DNA of 64,000 nucleotides, taken from contig NZ_FRBC01000006.1 in assembly GCF_900142515.1 (NCBI RefSeq), positions 1 to 64,000 of the forward strand, given 5' to 3'. The position numbers were made by a program, and so were the translations under genes. The notes below the pieces were generated by a model. That model saw only the letters and a program-made list of their open reading frames with translations. It did not search any database and was not told where the DNA came from. Positions 53,696-61,121 of this stretch are shown here, piece after piece (positions within the stretch are counted from its first letter, which is position 1; every line of letters begins with the position of its first letter). The DNA comes from Pseudoselenomonas ruminantium. Its GTDB lineage: Bacteria > Bacillota > Negativicutes > Selenomonadales > Selenomonadaceae.

Positions 53696-53953
53696 TTCCG
53701 TCACGCTCCTTCTTGATTCTTATTGTATCAATTAAAACGCGACAGGACAGCATGCCGAAACAATTCCGATACATTGTTACAGATTTTTCCGCCTGCTTCC
53801 CAAAAAATTGAAACCACGCCACAATAAAGAAGCTATTGCATGAATGAGAAATCTTATGCACAGCCCCATACACACTTTGCTGATGCCATTAAATTTTCCA
53901 ATCGATGGCCTCGGGCATCTGGCAGCTATACTCCTCATCAGCAATGACCAGGG

Positions 53954-54736
53954 TTATTTTGTAATATTAGCATGCGCTTTTAGTGGTGTAATTGCTTTCA
54001 ATATAACATTGAAATGTTTTTGCACATAAGCAGATTTTTCCCAAGGAGTCGATAGCATCATATCCTTAAAAAGCCCTGTGGAATGATCGGGATTTGTAAT
54101 CGCAATCATAGAAGAATATTTTGCTTTAAGTACCAATCTAGTGCTCTTTAGATAATTTTTCCGAACATCGTCATTGTTTTCAAGAAGTGAAACGTACTTT
54201 TGCGCTTCTTCATAAATTATTTTACCACTTTCGTTTTTTTCTTTAACTGCATTCATTAAAAGTGTTTCTATTGCACCCTGTTCATAAAAAGGAAATATCA
54301 CTGGCGTAATTTTTGTAGATGCTATTTCTCCATTGGGGCATTCTATATTACACATAGTTGAAGTATTATTTTGAAGTGACAAACCATCTATTATATTTTC
54401 AGCCATACCAGCCAATATTTCTTTCTCATCGTCATTATCTCTATCACGTACAATAACAACAGATTCCGGAGATGCTGATGGTATTTCCTTTACAAATTTA
54501 TCGATTATTATATGTAAAGGTTCTGCAAAACTATCCTTTCCGCCTACACTCCATATAGCAACACCATCATTATCTTTTTTCATATAAATTACCTTGCGAC
54601 CAGATTTGTTTTCCGGAATCTTATAACTTGTCCACAAGGATTTACCATTGTCCATCATCCATCCATCGATTTTATGCAGAAAATAGGAAATAAACCAAAG
54701 GTCATCCTGACCTTCACATAATATAACGGATTTCAT
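53954..54736 (-). CDS. TOPRIM-domain protein (DUF4435/DUF3226-like), partner of an AAA ATPase
   Basis: A 260-residue protein. SVILCEGQDDLWFISYFL carries the TOPRIM glutamate (E8) and VVIVRDRDNDD carries the DxD pair (D98, D100), the metal site of OLD-type nucleases. The rest is unlike known domains to me. It overlaps the ATPase gene by four bases, in the order ATPase then TOPRIM, as in PARIS systems (AriA-AriB) and as a split version of OLD nucleases. AT content is clearly higher than in the flanking host genes, so transfer is likely. DUF family choice is uncertain. Confidence 0.75.
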   Translation of the reverse strand: MKSVILCEGQDDLWFISYFLHKIDGWMMDNGKSLWTSYKIPENKSGRKVIYMKKDNDGVAIWSVGGKDSFAEPLHIIIDKFVKEIPSASPESVVIVRDRDNDDEKEILAGMAENIIDGLSLQNNTSTMCNIECPNGEIASTKITPVIFPFYEQGAIETLLMNAVKEKNESGKIIYEEAQKYVSLLENNDDVRKNYLKSTRLVLKAKYSSMIAITNPDHSTGLFKDMMLSTPWEKSAYVQKHFNVILKAITPLKAHANITK

Positions 54737-55803
54737 ATTCGCAGCTCCAATTCATAATCTTCTCGGTCGTTATATGCTTCTTCCCCAGTTCGTATCTTGC
54801 TTCTCGTGATTTGCGAAGCATTATCTTTCCTCAAGGTAATGACACGTAATAAATCATCCTGTGAGAAATGGCTATGTGCAATAGATAAAATCGCATCTAA
54901 AGCTTCTGCACTATGCGTAGTAATAAATGCCTGTACATGATATTTCCTGCAAGCGTTCAAGAACCAATAGAATACATCTCTAAATGCCGAAACATGTATT
55001 GCATTATCAATTTCGTCTACCAGTATGATACCATTTTTACAATTTGCAATTTCCACAGCCAAGCAAAGAGCTTTTTGCATTCCCGCACCATACGAAAATA
55101 ACGGAAGCACTCCTCTTATTGTACTATGTAAGTAAATATCCTCATCTATGATACTAATATCCATAATGGTATCATCAAATGGTTTAATAATTTCTATCAA
55201 TTCTTCTTTACCATTATTTATAATATAATCTTTTATAGCATTCGCCGTGGTGCGATAGTAATTTATACCAGAAAACACATACGTTACATGATATAAATCA
55301 TTTTCATCAGCTGTGAATAGCGTATCTGTATTATTTATGATTTTATCATATTTATATTTTGGTTTTTTACTGGAAGTATTTGATATCTTTACAGATAAAT
55401 CCATCATTGTTTGCGGTTCACCTGATGTATTCGTTATTTTTCCAACAGTACCACCGGCTTCATAAAGATATCTTATATTTTTTATGTTAGCTCCGATTTT
55501 AATACGATATGATGCACTTGCTTCATCTGATTCTGTATCTTTTTGAAAAACACTTAAAACATATTGAACAATATTTTTCTTTCTAGCCTCTGGCGATACG
55601 CTAACTCTTATGGCCGAAAGGCTAATCAATTGTCCAATGTCGCTGGGGTTGGATAGGATACGAATTGCTTCTAGCGCACTTGTTTTCCCACAATTATTAG
55701 GGCCAGCAAGCACATTTACAAAGGATAAATCATTTATTTCTAATTCATTTATCCCTCTGAAATGATGGATGTTCATTCCGTTCAATATAAGTTGTTTCTC
55801 CAT
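54733..55803 (-). CDS. AAA15/OLD-like ATPase of a putative PARIS-type defence pair
   Basis: A 356-residue SMC/ABC-like ATPase. Walker A GPNNCGKT is at residues 34-41, just after the typical HHFRGINELEINDL start. The signature-like segment FSYGAGMQKAL, Walker B IILVDEIDNAIH (about residue 254), and the H-loop TTHSAEAL (about 296) are intact. The insert between Walker A and the signature is AT-rich and lacks known motifs. The size and partner fit AriA of PARIS or the AAA half of an OLD nuclease. It begins 19 bp after the restriction enzyme gene, so all three form one operon. Confidence 0.8.
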   Translation of the reverse strand: MEKQLILNGMNIHHFRGINELEINDLSFVNVLAGPNNCGKTSALEAIRILSNPSDIGQLISLSAIRVSVSPEARKKNIVQYVLSVFQKDTESDEASASYRIKIGANIKNIRYLYEAGGTVGKITNTSGEPQTMMDLSVKISNTSSKKPKYKYDKIINNTDTLFTADENDLYHVTYVFSGINYYRTTANAIKDYIINNGKEELIEIIKPFDDTIMDISIIDEDIYLHSTIRGVLPLFSYGAGMQKALCLAVEIANCKNGIILVDEIDNAIHVSAFRDVFYWFLNACRKYHVQAFITTHSAEALDAILSIAHSHFSQDDLLRVITLRKDNASQITRSKIRTGEEAYNDREDYELELRI

Positions 55804-55822
55804 AAAAACAATTTGTCTCCCT

Positions 55823-58800
55823 TCATTTGAAATATTTTTGGATTGCCGCTTCCTTTTCCTGCTTTAGCTTGAGAATTCGAGCTTGAGCAGCATTTTTCGA
55901 TTTGTCGGCCTGGGCTACAAAGTCGGCGAATTGGTTTTGAAGGTCTATTGGTGGCAATGTAATCGTAAATTTCTTTGCATCAGCAACATTTACGTGTGGA
56001 ACAGTAGCCCCTGTGTTTTTACTATCGGCCTGATGTTTGACGTCATCTGATATAAGAGCATACAGTAGATACTCTGGACAACACATACAAGGATTGGCTC
56101 TAAACAACATCACCCTTTGTCCTAAACAGAAATTATATCCTCTTGGCAATATAGCAGCATTACCATACGTTCCCTCACGACCGTATACAATATCGCCTGG
56201 CATAGGCTTGAGACGTTTGATTCGTTCTATATATTCATCTTTCGAAACATATTTCATGGTTGACCAGTCTATCCCCCCTAATTTTATTTCATTAGTTCGT
56301 ATAGCTGGATATACAAGTTCTCCTTGATATTTAGGAGTTGTATGTGGGCAATCTACAATATCCGAACAAACTTCTTCAATCTTAACAATAGGATATTCAC
56401 TACTTCCAAGTATCTCGATAAACCGTGATTTAATATCATCGTCACATTTTTTTATATCCTGCTCCAGATTCGTCACCTGCGAATCGATGACTTCGATTTC
56501 CTCCACCACTTTGCTTTGCACAGCAACGCTGGGAATTTGTACAGTCAAGCTCTTTATTCTTGCCGTAGATGCCCGGTTGCTGCGAGAGAATCTTTCGTAT
56601 TCGCCCTCTACCTGCAAAGCCAGGGCCAGGTATTTCGGCAATATCTTATCCGTATTTACCCGAATTACGCCGCAATGGTCGGTAGGATAGAACGGATAAT
56701 TTTCCGGCAGATAATTGACCATCCAATCCCCATCAATGCCCCAGATAACCGAAGGCTGGCTGAAATCTGTCAAGTTTTGCCTATTGATACGACCAAATTC
56801 CTCAAAGACATTAGCACTATAAACAGGATATTCGCCATCTTCTTCAATCTCTGAGGCCACTACACGATTGCCAATGCTGACAGAAAACTCCTTACCGTCC
56901 AGCTTGTAAGCCGTCATGCCTTCCTTTATCACCTGATGACGCACTTTTGTGGTTTTGATGGCCTTGTTGAAATTCACGCCGCCAAAATCCAGCATATCCG
57001 TTGTAGCCATGTAATGATAGTATTCACCCAAGTCACCAGTCGGTTCCTCCTGCGTTCCAAAGGACGCACGAACCACGGCTGCCAATGTGTCTGCGGCTTG
57101 CCTGTCCTGCGGATTATACAGCAGTCCTCCCAGCTTTTTGATTTGTATGCCTTCCTGCCCTTTCCGATTGCTCCAGCCATAGCCTAGGAATTTTTCCTGT
57201 CCCTTGTTGTCGTCCGGGGCTGTAATAATTAATGTGGTCTGTCCATAAGCCAAGGAAAAATACAGGAGCTTTTCCGCTTCTTTGCCGATAGCAAATTCAT
57301 AGAAAGCGACATTGCACCACTCCAGTTTTTCTTTCTCGCTCTTGGCCTGATAGCCCTTTTGCTTGACCTTGGCACTGTATTCTGCTGAGGACAGGAACGC
57401 TTTGGTATAGGCATCTATATAAGGTACATCTGCCCAACCATTGAAGTTACGTTGCCGGGTTACAAATTCGCCGTAAATGTTCCTCTCTACTTGAATTTTA
57501 TCCAAATATGCTGCCAGAATATCCTTATCTTCCCAATCCTCCAAGCTCTGCGCAGTTAGTATAGCTTGTACGCTGTCCTCACAAAGATCAATCTTTTTCG
57601 GTGGCTCTACAAACTTTTCGAGGAACATAATAACCGTATTCGTCCCTGTTGCGCCAAAAGTCTTGCTCCCCAACTTAACAATAGCGCGCAGACAGAAATT
57701 TTGCAACAGGGATTCACGAGCAGCAATAAAGCTCTCGCTTTCCTTGTTTAGAATACTACTGGGCAGAATCACAGCCGCTACCCCTTGGGGCTTTAACAGC
57801 TGGGCAATGCGCTCCACAAAAAGCGTTTCTATCTCCGAACCATTGTTGCTTATCTTGGCCAGAATGGTAAAATCATTGTCCTTCAATTTCAAATGCGGCT
57901 TAAAAGCCGCCACCGAATAGGGTGGATTGGCCACTAAAATATCGAAACTATGCGGACGGATATTTTTATCCACGTAATTTTCCAAACCATCGCCAAATAC
58001 AATGTTGCCAGCGCCAGCCCCATGCATAAAGAGGGAGATTTTGGACACTCTAGCCAAACGGTAATCTTTCTCTACACCATACAATTTTTCGCTCACCCAA
58101 GCATGTTCATCTTTTTGCACTAGGGCATTTACCGCCTCATACCCCTGGGTAAGAAAGTGCCCAGCTCCACAGGCATAATCAATGATTTTGGGATATTCCT
58201 GCTCTTTTTTCCGCAATATCTCGCTTAAAGGCAAACTGTCCCATACAAAACGAGTAATTGGCATAGGTGTAAAAAACTGCCCCTCATTTTGCTTGAAACC
58301 CTTGCTCAAAAGTTGCTCAAAAAGATCCCCCAGTGTCTGCAGGTCACGAGAACCTATAATACGATATTCTTCAAAGAGTTGTACCACTTCCACCAGTATT
58401 TTACCGTTCTGATAAAACAGCTCTTCATTATGCACATCTTTGAAGGCAAAATCATTGTTGGTATAAAATTTCAAACTACGCAAAGTCTTCTTCAGTTCCG
58501 CTATCAGCTTGTTTCTTTTCTGCCCCGTATATTGCTGGATTAAATTTTCAGCATAGTCATCTGCTACATAGAAAATCTGTTCCCGCATGAATTTCTCCAT
58601 GCCGTCACGATGCAAGCGCTGTAACCTGTCCTGGAGATTTTCATAGGTGTCCGTACCTACCTTGTACTGAAATTCCACCTCATCATCTTCATCTTTTTGA
58701 ATTTCATCCACCAGCTTGCAGATAAAGAGGGCAATCAGACGATTAAAAGCATTTTCCTTATCCGACACATTGTTGTGACGCAAGATTTCCTCAAAGCGGT

Positions 58801-59548
58801 TTACAATTTTGTCATTTTCGCTGAAATCCCGCAAATCTTTCTTCCGCAAGGGTTTGGCCCCAATCTCATAGGCCACAGTATCATCACGGAAGACCACATC
58901 GCCAAACAAGCGTTTCTCATAAGTTTCATCCCAAACAGCAAAAAGCTCCTCCACAGTATGTGCATCGTCATAAAGTTTTATGGAACTGTCCTGTTTTTGC
59001 GCAATCCGCATATTACTATCGTCATTACAAGAGATGCTGTCTGTTCGATAGGTAATCCGATTATCTTCCCAATCAGAAGCATACAGCAAAAGCCATTGAC
59101 AGGCATCTTCCTGCTTCCAGTATGAGATAAGCTGACCTCCATCAATCTGTGTTTGGCGCAGTTCGTTATCATACTCCCGGCCCGCTGTCTTGCACTCAAT
59201 GATAAAGAGCATCTTTCCGTCAGCTCCGGTCACACATATATCAGCTCGGCCGCTTTTAGCGTCATGCCCTAAGTGCCATTCCTTTTCCAGCTCGATGTGC
59301 TCTGGGCGATACCCCTTATCCAACAAACGATTCACACACTCGAAGACCACCATATTTTCCTTATGGGCCTCATCAAAATAAGCGTTACGTTCCCGCCCCT
59401 TTATCTTCTCCGGGTAAATCAGCTTTCTATTTTCCCAATCCACTTTCAGATAATCGTCATACTCCGGGAAATATTTTGCATACCCGCCATCGCTTTCTAT
59501 AAATTGCATATATTTTAATGCCGCCACAAAATTTTTAACAGTTATCAT
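55823..59548 (-). CDS. Single-chain restriction-modification enzyme (nuclease-methylase-specificity fusion)
   Basis: A 1241-residue protein, start at 59548 behind GGAGG. From the N-terminus: a PD-(D/E)xK nuclease of HsdR_N type (RADIC with D103, FIIECK with E118/K120); a linker; an HsdM-like N6-adenine methylase (GQFFTPMPITRF, SAM motif DYACGAGHFL about 457, catalytic VANPPY about 541); and from about residue 900 an HsdS-like part with two target-recognition regions separated by helices (DSQVTNLEQDIKKCDDDI; RILKLKQEKEAAIQKYF). There is no helicase, so it is a Type IIG/IIL-like enzyme. It leads the ATPase/TOPRIM pair. Confidence 0.88.
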   Translation of the reverse strand: MITVKNFVAALKYMQFIESDGGYAKYFPEYDDYLKVDWENRKLIYPEKIKGRERNAYFDEAHKENMVVFECVNRLLDKGYRPEHIELEKEWHLGHDAKSGRADICVTGADGKMLFIIECKTAGREYDNELRQTQIDGGQLISYWKQEDACQWLLLYASDWEDNRITYRTDSISCNDDSNMRIAQKQDSSIKLYDDAHTVEELFAVWDETYEKRLFGDVVFRDDTVAYEIGAKPLRKKDLRDFSENDKIVNRFEEILRHNNVSDKENAFNRLIALFICKLVDEIQKDEDDEVEFQYKVGTDTYENLQDRLQRLHRDGMEKFMREQIFYVADDYAENLIQQYTGQKRNKLIAELKKTLRSLKFYTNNDFAFKDVHNEELFYQNGKILVEVVQLFEEYRIIGSRDLQTLGDLFEQLLSKGFKQNEGQFFTPMPITRFVWDSLPLSEILRKKEQEYPKIIDYACGAGHFLTQGYEAVNALVQKDEHAWVSEKLYGVEKDYRLARVSKISLFMHGAGAGNIVFGDGLENYVDKNIRPHSFDILVANPPYSVAAFKPHLKLKDNDFTILAKISNNGSEIETLFVERIAQLLKPQGVAAVILPSSILNKESESFIAARESLLQNFCLRAIVKLGSKTFGATGTNTVIMFLEKFVEPPKKIDLCEDSVQAILTAQSLEDWEDKDILAAYLDKIQVERNIYGEFVTRQRNFNGWADVPYIDAYTKAFLSSAEYSAKVKQKGYQAKSEKEKLEWCNVAFYEFAIGKEAEKLLYFSLAYGQTTLIITAPDDNKGQEKFLGYGWSNRKGQEGIQIKKLGGLLYNPQDRQAADTLAAVVRASFGTQEEPTGDLGEYYHYMATTDMLDFGGVNFNKAIKTTKVRHQVIKEGMTAYKLDGKEFSVSIGNRVVASEIEEDGEYPVYSANVFEEFGRINRQNLTDFSQPSVIWGIDGDWMVNYLPENYPFYPTDHCGVIRVNTDKILPKYLALALQVEGEYERFSRSNRASTARIKSLTVQIPSVAVQSKVVEEIEVIDSQVTNLEQDIKKCDDDIKSRFIEILGSSEYPIVKIEEVCSDIVDCPHTTPKYQGELVYPAIRTNEIKLGGIDWSTMKYVSKDEYIERIKRLKPMPGDIVYGREGTYGNAAILPRGYNFCLGQRVMLFRANPCMCCPEYLLYALISDDVKHQADSKNTGATVPHVNVADAKKFTITLPPIDLQNQFADFVAQADKSKNAAQARILKLKQEKEAAIQKYFK

Positions 59549-59585
59549 TGATCCTCCAATGCCTTTTTGCAAAAATGTCCCTTTA

Positions 59586-59614
59586 ATTATACCGCAAACA
59601 GGAAAATTAACCAA
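59586..59614 (-). promoter_or_regulatory. Promoter of the defence operon
   Basis: TTGGTT, 17 bp, TATAAT on the minus strand, preceded by TGCGG, a near-extended -10. It lies 38 bp before the restriction enzyme start. Downstream genes have no obvious promoters of their own. Confidence 0.6.
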
Positions 59615-59624
59615 ACAAAACAGA

Positions 59625-59651
59625 CTGACCAATCAAAAAGTGACTGGTCAG
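59625..59651 (-). terminator. Terminator after hydG
   Basis: CTGACCAGTC-ACTTTTT-GATTGGTCAG on the minus strand, 10-bp stem with one G-T, followed by TCTGTTTTGTTT. It insulates hydG from the defence operon. Confidence 0.75.
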
Positions 59652-59663
59652 CCCTAGATATCG

Positions 59664-61121
59664 TTAAAACCGGAAATCCCGTTTATCTGAATGTTTGATA
59701 GCCTCGATATGTTCAGCGGCAATCTCTCTTACTTTTTCTTTCGGTATTTTCTTCAGCTCTTCATCTATGAGCTTATAGCCCAATGCTTTCGTTTCCTCAC
59801 TGGCATAATCCGTGAGATATTCCGTCAGCGTCATCAGAGCGTTAGGCGTGCAGCAGTTGACGATCTGGCCGCTCTTGCAAAGGCTCATGAACCGGTCACC
59901 GGTACGTCCCTCCCGATAGCAGGCTGTGCAGAAGGAAGGGATATGCCCCGTTTCCATCAGCCATTTGATGACCTCATCCAAGGTTCTCTGGTCCGATACA
60001 TTGAACTGTTCTGTATCGGTGGGGCGTTCTTCTTCCGTATAACCGCCCACACTGGTACGGCTGGCACCGCTGACCTGGCTGATGCCCACCTGCAGCATCT
60101 TCTCCCGCACCTGTTCAGACTCTCTGGTCGAGATGATCATGCCGGTATAAGGCACCGCCAGACGGATGCAGGCCGCAATCTTGGTGAATATCTCATCACT
60201 GATGGAATTATCAAAGGCCTCGGGATCGATATCATCCGCCTTTTTCACCCGCGGCACGGAAATCGTATGCGGGCCGACACCATGCACAGCTTCGAGATGT
60301 TCGGCGTGCATCAGCATGCCTGCGAATTCATATTTATAACCATCAAGGCCAAAGAGCACACCAATGCCCACATCATCAATGCCGCCTTCCATGGCGCGGT
60401 CCATCGCTTCGGTATGATAGGCGTAATCATGCTTCGGCCCCGTAGGATGCAGGCGGCCATAGCTTTCCTTGTTATAGGTTTCCTGAAAGAGGATATAGGT
60501 GCCGATACCCGCTTCCTTGAGCTTGCGGTAGTTCTCCACCGTGGTCGCAGCGATATTGACATTGACGCGGCGGATGGCGCCGTTCTTATGCTTGATGCTG
60601 TAGATGGTATGAATACAATCCAGGATATACTCGATGGGATTGTTGACGGGATCCTCCCCGGCCTCAATCGCCAAGCGCTTATGCCCCATATCCTGCAGGG
60701 CGATAACCTCAGCCTTCACTTCCTCCTGCGTGAGCTTCTTGCGCGGGATATGCTTGTTCTGCCCATGATAAGGACAGTAGACACAGCCATTCACGCAGTA
60801 ATTGGACAGATAAAGCGGTGCAAACAGTACAATGCGATTACCATAGAAGGCCTGTTTGATTTCCTCGGCAATCTCATACATCCGGGCAACCTTCTCCGGA
60901 TTCTCACAGGCCAGCAGTACCGAAGCCTCCCTGTGACTGAGGCCACGGCACACATAGCCGTTGCCCTTCTTCACTGGGCGGGCCTTCTCCATGATCTCAT
61001 CAATCAGTTCATAATTTTCTTTATTCGCCTCTGCGTAAGCCAGTGTCTCCTGGATCTCCGCATCATTGATAAACTCTTCTGCACGTAAAGAACGGGGATT
61101 GTATTCATACATAGTGGTCAT
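59664..61121 (-). CDS. hydG: [FeFe] hydrogenase maturase HydG
   Basis: Radical SAM tyrosine lyase that makes the CO and CN ligands of the [FeFe] hydrogenase H-cluster. The 485-residue protein has the cluster motif CVNGCVYC and the C-terminal CTACYREGRTGDRFM..VNCC region that binds the auxiliary cluster, which separates HydG from ThiH. LFQETYNKESYGRLHP is conserved. ATGs at 61121 and 61112 both lie near AAAGGA; I give the first. hydE and hydF are not in the window. Confidence 0.95.
   Translation of the reverse strand: MTTMYEYNPRSLRAEEFINDAEIQETLAYAEANKENYELIDEIMEKARPVKKGNGYVCRGLSHREASVLLACENPEKVARMYEIAEEIKQAFYGNRIVLFAPLYLSNYCVNGCVYCPYHGQNKHIPRKKLTQEEVKAEVIALQDMGHKRLAIEAGEDPVNNPIEYILDCIHTIYSIKHKNGAIRRVNVNIAATTVENYRKLKEAGIGTYILFQETYNKESYGRLHPTGPKHDYAYHTEAMDRAMEGGIDDVGIGVLFGLDGYKYEFAGMLMHAEHLEAVHGVGPHTISVPRVKKADDIDPEAFDNSISDEIFTKIAACIRLAVPYTGMIISTRESEQVREKMLQVGISQVSGASRTSVGGYTEEERPTDTEQFNVSDQRTLDEVIKWLMETGHIPSFCTACYREGRTGDRFMSLCKSGQIVNCCTPNALMTLTEYLTDYASEETKALGYKLIDEELKKIPKEKVREIAAEHIEAIKHSDKRDFRF

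What the first reader, a model, noticed from the sequence alone, without database searches (positions are those of the whole stretch)
53954..55803. PARIS-like ATPase/TOPRIM pair behind a restriction enzyme
Seen: an AAA15-like ATPase and a TOPRIM protein, overlapping by four bases, 19 bp downstream of a restriction-modification gene, all AT-rich. Known: PARIS (AriA ATPase plus AriB DUF4435 TOPRIM nuclease) senses phage anti-restriction proteins and is often near restriction systems; split OLD nucleases share this layout. Inference: a backup defence triggered when the linked restriction enzyme is inhibited. The TOPRIM protein is only weakly like known DUF4435 members and may be a new branch.
Basis: partly seen in the sequence, partly recalled or inferred. 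Interest (0 to 1): 0.65.

Follow-up and report, generated by a model that had tools for sequence, protein, structure and literature searches.

The report
DUF3226 ATPase-TOPRIM pair beside restriction enzyme
A two-gene cassette, probably a sensor ATPase that restrains a nuclease, rides with a restriction enzyme in a Selenomonas-type bacterium; it probably works much like the anti-phage PARIS system but belongs to a different, already catalogued and still untested family (PADLOC PDC-M38).

Summary
Minus strand: a type IIG restriction-methylation gene (55823-59548), 19 bp, an AAA_21/AAA_15 ATPase (54733-55803), then a TOPRIM protein (53954-54736) overlapping it by 4 bp. The TOPRIM protein is not DUF4435/AriB and not RloB/AbiLii. 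It is DUF3226 (38.3 bits, cut-off 27), and both proteins match PADLOC's catalogued, unvalidated candidate PDC-M38 (E 8e-103 and 4e-113). So it is not PARIS by family, but it probably works like PARIS, AbiL or OLD: an ATPase sensor plus a nuclease effector.

The pair is conserved elsewhere and mobile. The trio occurs in three genomes of the genus, at two chromosomal sites. The pair also sits inside an Hma operon, beside BREX genes, behind a type I HsdS, in P2-like phage contigs, and alone on tiny Klebsiella plasmids. Behind one other homologous type IIG gene the same slot holds a Septu (PtuAB) pair. One relative lost the TOPRIM catalytic motif while keeping the ATPase intact.

Backup defence triggered by failure of the linked enzyme is plausible but unproven: the pair often stands alone, and most homologous type IIG genes lack it. 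A new member of a known kind, of moderate interest.

The parts
53954..54736 (-). TOPRIM protein (260 aa), DUF3226 / PADLOC PDC-M38B; likely nuclease effector. Invariant across ten divergent relatives: E8, D98, D100, G154, E157, K204
   Evidence: DUF3226 38.3 bits, cut-off 27; PDC-M38B 375 bits; invariant residues; profile matches PH0156, PDB 2p62, E 7e-5
54733..55803 (-). ABC/OLD-type ATPase (356 aa), AAA_21/AAA_15, PADLOC PDC-M38A; likely sensor that restrains the TOPRIM protein. Walker A GPNNCGKTS, signature-like SYGAGMQKAL, Walker B GIILVDEID, H-switch TTHS
   Evidence: 4-bp ATGA overlap with the TOPRIM gene
55823..59548 (-). Type IIG restriction enzyme-methyltransferase (1241 aa from ATG 59548; mechanical ORF to TTG 59632): N-terminal PD-(D/E)XK-like stretch (RADICV...FIIECK), N6-methylase, S-type recognition domains
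   Evidence: REase_MTase_IIG 940 bits
59586..59614 (-). Possible promoter of the three-gene operon (TTGGTT-17 nt-TATAAT), just downstream of the hydG-side terminator; read by eye, the consensus scan did not list it
   Evidence: sequence; terminator-like hairpin 59654-59622 (-); no terminator-like site on the minus strand between the restriction gene and the ATPase gene
53823..59670 (-). Approximate extent of the inserted three-gene cassette between hydG and the ROK kinase gene; the site is about 155 bp and empty in relative G007 (L069)
   Evidence: same cassette at the same site in G017 (L017) and between the MNQ gene and glnB in G016 (L006)

Best explanation
The pair is an abortive-infection type anti-phage module of the PDC-M38 (DUF3226) family. 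The ABC/OLD-type ATPase probably binds and restrains the co-translated TOPRIM nuclease in resting cells. On sensing a phage product, ATP-dependent rearrangement would release or activate the TOPRIM protein, which would cut a vital nucleic acid (most likely host tRNA, by analogy with AriB and OLD; DNA remains possible) and stop growth before phage release. In this genome it appears to form one operon with a type IIG restriction enzyme and moves with it as a cassette, acting as a second layer behind restriction. Shown here: the genes, their family, catalytic residues, gene layout, selection, mobility and recurring contexts. Inferred: defence activity, restraint by the ATPase, the substrate and the trigger.
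For: Both proteins match PDC-M38A/B end to end, and the TOPRIM protein is DUF3226. TOPRIM residues E8, D98, D100 and a further G154-x2-E157 are invariant over ten relatives, all 14-28% identical to P0001; the ATPase keeps the ABC motifs. The 4-bp overlap recurs in most relatives. Purifying selection: dN/dS 0.12-0.13. The pair sits between HmaA and HmaB (L018), beside BrxP/BrxC (L023), behind HsdS and PDC-M14 (L028), in a P2-like phage contig (L029), and on Klebsiella ColRNAI plasmids. Behind a homologous IIG gene (L046) the slot holds Septu PtuAB. The trio is found at two sites. L006 lost the DxD motif through an in-frame 72-bp deletion while its ATPase stayed intact, and L024 has a broken TOPRIM gene with an intact ATPase. 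Literature: AriA sequesters AriB, a two-metal tRNase (PMC12409363); AAA proteins neutralise TOPRIM toxins from C. algidicarnis and S. agalactiae (PMC10440598); HEC-04, an Hma-embedded ATPase-TOPRIM protein, defends against T4 and T5 (PMC12111858).
Against: No PDC-M38 member has been shown to stop a phage in anything I could read; one study discards PADLOC's PDC class among systems not experimentally verified or unpublished (PMC12409356). AlphaFold models were poor (mean pLDDT 31.8 and 44.9), so neither fold nor complex was tested. Nothing here tests substrate or trigger. Decay of TOPRIM genes with the ATPase kept rests on two genomes, one a metagenome assembly.
Confidence: 0.7

Rival explanations
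1. Restriction-linked backup: the ATPase specifically senses phage inhibition of the linked type IIG enzyme (an anti-restriction protein or the loss of restriction/methylation), as PARIS senses Ocr.
For: Trio moving as a unit to two sites. The same pair type beside three further kinds of methylation-based defence: Hma, BREX, type I. Another ATPase-nuclease pair, Septu, in the same slot behind a homologous IIG gene. The pair is conserved while the recognition domains diverge (dN/dS 0.51 against 0.12-0.13). PARIS is set off by Ocr (PMC9122126), and OLD-ABC/TOPRIM modules are described as backup effectors in BREX (PMC12839542).
Against: About half of the independent pair loci have no restriction neighbour (L019/L020, L022, L026, L027), and the Klebsiella relatives stand alone on 4-kb plasmids. 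Of 38 genomes in the family with a match to the IIG enzyme, only 3 carry the pair behind it in what I read. Clustering in defence islands explains adjacency without functional coupling.
Confidence: 0.25
2. A toxin-antitoxin or addiction cassette: the ATPase is the antitoxin, the TOPRIM protein the toxin, and the pair mainly stabilises the restriction locus or the mobile element that carries it, with phage defence secondary.
For: Two-gene overlapping layout; pair on small Klebsiella plasmids; effector decay with the ATPase retained; AAA proteins neutralise TOPRIM toxins in E. coli (PMC10440598). Other IIG genes are followed by toxin-antitoxin-like small genes by eye (XRE-like in L045, MqsA-like in L036, DUF4160/DUF2442-like in L058).
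Against: In PARIS, deleting either gene is non-toxic (PMC9122126), and no antitoxicity was seen for F. nucleatum AbiLi against AbiLii (PMC3985639). The pair is embedded in several immune systems, which an addiction module alone would not predict.
Confidence: 0.2
3. An auxiliary DNA-cutting arm of restriction: the ATPase-TOPRIM complex directly degrades unmodified or damaged phage DNA, as OLD/Gabija-type nucleases do in vitro, without killing the host.
For: OLD-family ATPase and TOPRIM domains; several OLD proteins cut DNA in vitro (PMC10568477); gene order with a restriction enzyme.
Against: The TOPRIM family is DUF3226, distinct in sequence from OLD/GajA. Several ATPase-nuclease systems of this kind act on tRNA: AriB (PMC12409363), Septu and, as proposed, OLD (PMC13096335).
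Confidence: 0.2

Closest known systems
PADLOC candidate PDC-M38 (PDC-M38A + PDC-M38B)
   Same: Both proteins match nearly full length with E 7.9e-103 and 3.9e-113; same two-gene layout.
   Different: A catalogue entry without known experimental proof; the cassette with a type IIG enzyme and the slot that can hold Septu instead are described here.
PARIS (AriA/AriB)
   Same: AAA_21/AAA_15 ATPase plus separate TOPRIM protein, overlapping genes, defence context; the ATPase matches AriA profiles (79.5 bits).
   Different: TOPRIM is DUF3226, not DUF4435; no AriB match; profile-profile probability 0.3% against four DUF4435 relatives.
AbiL / RloA-RloB
   Same: The ATPase matches an AbiLi profile (139 bits); a TOPRIM-type partner; RloB is known from type I restriction operons (PMC10440598).
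   Different: The TOPRIM partner is not RloB/AbiLii (no match; profile-profile probability 2.3%).
OLD nucleases and Gabija GajA
   Same: Same ATPase and TOPRIM superfamilies.
   Different: Those are one fused polypeptide; Gabija also needs the GajB helicase; here two separate genes of other subfamilies.
Septu (PtuA/PtuB) and Hma-embedded candidates (HEC)
   Same: ATPase-nuclease modules placed inside or behind methylation-based systems; Septu occupies the same slot behind a homologous IIG gene.
   Different: Septu uses an HNH nuclease; HEC-04 is an ATPase-TOPRIM fusion.

Membership tests
PDC-M38 (PADLOC) | ATPase matching PDC-M38A | tested here: met
   343 bits, residues 6-355
PDC-M38 (PADLOC) | TOPRIM-like protein matching PDC-M38B, adjacent gene | tested here: met
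   375 bits, residues 1-251; 4-bp overlap
PDC-M38 (PADLOC) | protection against phages | not testable with these tools
   no experimental report found
PARIS | AAA_15 (>=32 bits) or AAA_21 (>=27 bits) ATPase | tested here: met
   AAA_21 80.3 bits, AAA_15 68.3 bits; rule from PMC9122126
PARIS | DUF4435 protein (>=27 bits) | tested here: not met
   no DUF4435 match at E<=10 for P0001 and none at E<=0.1 in eight relatives; the DUF4435 control L080 scores 36.3 bits
PARIS | triggered by an anti-restriction protein such as Ocr; cuts tRNA | not testable with these tools
   needs experiments
AbiL / RloAB | AbiLi-type ATPase | tested here: met
   PDLC02336, 139 bits, below the PDC-M38A match
AbiL / RloAB | RloB/AbiLii TOPRIM partner | tested here: not met
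   no RloB match, no AbiLii match at E<=10; hhalign 2.3%
OLD / Gabija | ATPase and TOPRIM in one polypeptide; GajB helicase for Gabija | tested here: not met
   two separate ORFs; no helicase in the cassette
DUF3226 (PF11536) | score over the curated cut-off | tested here: met
   P0001 38.3 bits against 27; of eight relatives tested, L099, L018, L020, L026 and L023 also pass, L027, L028 and L029 do not
Type IIG restriction enzyme | nuclease, N6-methylase and recognition domains in one chain | tested here: met
   N6_Mtase 115.5 bits, Methylase_S 83.5 bits, HSDR_N_2 24.4 bits (just under its cut-off of 25); REase_MTase_IIG 940 bits

The most novel reading that the evidence does not exclude
DUF3226 TOPRIM proteins with their ATPases form a distinct class of split-OLD immune system, separate from PARIS and AbiL. 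They are repeatedly recruited as a plug-in behind or inside methylation-based defences (IIG, type I, Hma, BREX) and are interchangeable there with Septu, so that failure of restriction sets off cell suicide whichever enzyme is linked.
Probability: 0.2. Interest if true: 0.6.

Novelty: new member of a known kind. Interest (0 to 1): 0.4.

Why it matters
ATPase-TOPRIM modules are common in bacterial immunity, but only AriB, OLD and a few relatives are understood. This locus places the DUF3226 branch among them, shows that it turns up with several restriction-type systems and that one such slot can hold Septu instead, and points to compact test systems (a pair on 4-kb plasmids with ColRNAI replicons) in which substrate, trigger and dependence on restriction could be measured directly.

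Tried and rejected
Sequence search of the PDB with the DUF4435 control alignment did not find AriB either, so the missing AriB match of our profile cannot exclude a shared fold; the DUF4435 membership test rests on Pfam instead. tblastn of the TOPRIM protein found nothing in plasmids or phages; the ATPase as query opened the Klebsiella lead. Viral contigs held no close relative of the window's TOPRIM protein, only the ParB-fused sister branch. PARIS membership was rejected for lack of DUF4435; AbiL membership for lack of RloB. No paper in the library mentions DUF3226 or PDC-M38.

Full report
Observation. On the minus strand the window holds, in order of transcription, a type IIG restriction-methylation gene (55823-59548, ATG start with a ribosome-binding site by eye; a mechanical ORF extends to TTG 59632), a 19-bp gap, a 356-aa ATPase gene (54733-55803) and a 260-aa gene (53954-54736) overlapping it by ATGA. 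The GC content is 43% for the restriction gene and 33-34% for the pair, against mostly 47-55% around them.

What the proteins are. The ATPase matches AAA_21 (80.3 bits) and AAA_15 (68.3 bits) and carries Walker A (GPNNCGKTS), a signature-like motif (SYGAGMQKAL), Walker B (GIILVDEID) and the H-switch (TTHS); their key residues are conserved across eleven relatives. The downstream protein matches Pfam DUF3226 (38.3 bits, cut-off 27) with a just sub-threshold OLD-like TOPRIM match. It has no match to DUF4435 or RloB, nor any primase or RNase M5 match, at E<=10. PADLOC assigns the two proteins to PDC-M38A (343 bits) and PDC-M38B (375 bits). The restriction protein matches REase_MTase_IIG at 940 bits.

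Is the TOPRIM assignment sound? An eight-sequence profile finds PH0156 (PDB 2p62), a solved protein listed only as hypothetical, at E 7e-5. Over ten divergent relatives, including a phage-borne and a plasmid-borne branch, the invariant residues are E8-G9, D12, G66, D98-x-D100, G154-x2-E157, Y195 and K204. E8 and D98/D100 are the classical TOPRIM EG and DxD positions. Profile-profile comparison with a four-member DUF4435 alignment gives 0.3% probability and with a six-member RloB alignment 2.3%. The DUF4435 control itself does not find AriB in the PDB by sequence, so a common fold is not excluded; only family membership is.

Is it functional? Against the copy in relative G017 (protein identity 96.5% TOPRIM, 91% ATPase), dN/dS is 0.118 for the TOPRIM gene, 0.134 for the ATPase gene, 0.075 for residues 1-860 of the restriction protein and 0.51 for its recognition domains. 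Pair and enzyme core are thus under purifying selection while the DNA specificity has probably changed.

Distribution. PDC-M38B is found in 11 of 380 genomes of the class, 10 of 189 of the family and 4 of 398 drawn across the phylum. The ATPase gene lies directly upstream in every locus where both genes survive, usually with a 4-bp overlap. The trio with the type IIG enzyme occurs in three genomes of the same genus: the window, G017 (same site) and G016 (L006). In G016 the cassette lies between the MNQ gene and glnB instead of between hydG and the ROK kinase gene. In relative G007 the hydG-ROK site is about 155 bp and empty (L069). The three genes therefore seem to move as one cassette of about 5.8 kb (roughly 53823-59670). 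I saw no target-site duplication.

Contexts elsewhere. In L018 the pair lies between HmaA and HmaB of an Hma operon, the ATPase start overlapping the HmaA stop. In L023 it lies beside BrxP and BrxC. In L028 it follows a type I HsdS and the candidate pair PDC-M14. In L024 an AbiL-type pair lies about 4-5 kb away. In L019/L020, L022, L026 and L027 no restriction system is seen nearby; for L019 four neighbours were scanned against PADLOC without a match, the others were judged by eye. In viral contig L029 a sister branch, with the ATPase fused to a ParB-like domain by eye, lies between replication and portal-like genes of what looks like a P2-like phage. In 134 plasmid records, mostly Klebsiella (128), an ATPase about 25% identical over nearly its whole length is found; in the two records opened (4-5 kb, ColRNAI replicons) a DUF3226 protein gene follows (95 bits for the L099 copy). 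That second protein is itself found in 144 plasmid records.

The slot behind the restriction gene. A match to the type IIG protein was found in 38 of 189 genomes of the family (weaker hits include S-domain-only matches). I read the downstream flank in 19 further loci, several cut short by contig ends. One (L046) has a Septu PtuA-PtuB pair 13 bp behind the gene. Others have, by eye, an XRE-like gene (L045), an MqsA-like gene (L036) or DUF4160/DUF2442-like genes (L058, where the restriction gene is largely deleted); most have nothing recognisable. The position is thus used by different ATPase-nuclease and toxin-antitoxin-like cassettes.

Decay of the effector. In L006 the TOPRIM gene has an in-frame 72-bp deletion that removes the DxD motif, and its C-terminal sequence diverges after about residue 191, while the ATPase is intact and the restriction gene is a full-length ORF. 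In L024 the TOPRIM gene is split and the ATPase intact; L025 keeps only a remnant. I saw no case of an intact TOPRIM gene without its ATPase. This suits a costly effector restrained by the ATPase, but it rests on few genomes.

Mechanism. Best supported is an ATPase sensor that restrains a TOPRIM nuclease and releases it upon infection. This is inference from related systems: AriA sequesters AriB, a two-metal tRNase (PMC12409363); AAA proteins neutralise TOPRIM toxins from C. algidicarnis and S. agalactiae (PMC10440598); an Hma-embedded ATPase-TOPRIM protein, HEC-04, protects against T4 and T5 (PMC12111858); Septu cuts tRNA-Tyr and OLD is proposed to act on tRNA (PMC13096335). tRNA is therefore my first guess for the substrate and DNA the second.

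Backup behind restriction. TOPRIM-linked OLD-ABC modules were recently described as backup effectors within BREX and related loci (PMC12839542), and PADLOC's PDC families were found by their embedding in immune systems (PMC12988326). The cassette with the IIG enzyme, the joint movement and the Hma, BREX and type I contexts fit this idea. The standalone loci, the plasmid relatives and the many IIG homologues without the pair show that the pair does not depend on this enzyme. I give the strict version 0.25.

Verdict. Not PARIS by membership; probably PARIS-like in action; a new member of a known, catalogued and untested kind.

Noticed in passing
L063, L066 and L068, between hydG and the ROK kinase gene: An element of about 650 bp with inverted-repeat ends (TTGCAGTTTGT...ACAAACTGCAA) and no obvious ORF sits at the site where the window carries the restriction cassette; it is present in either orientation and has no Rfam match.
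   Followed up: partly
L099 (CP067562.1) and L100 (NZ_CP043381.1): Small ColRNAI plasmids of Klebsiella carry a standalone ATPase + DUF3226 pair; 134-144 plasmid records hold one or both genes.
   Followed up: partly
L029 6738-9822: A viral contig that looks like a P2-like phage carries a ParB-like/ATPase fusion (744 aa) followed by a PDC-M38B protein between replication and portal-like genes; near-identical copies of the second protein in other viral contigs.
   Followed up: partly
L028 1070-2312: A second PADLOC candidate pair, PDC-M14A/B, lies between HsdS and the PDC-M38 pair.
   Followed up: no
L058 2731-5213: In relative G020 most of the type IIG gene is deleted and followed by DUF4160/DUF2442-like small genes, at the same site as the L006 cassette.
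   Followed up: no
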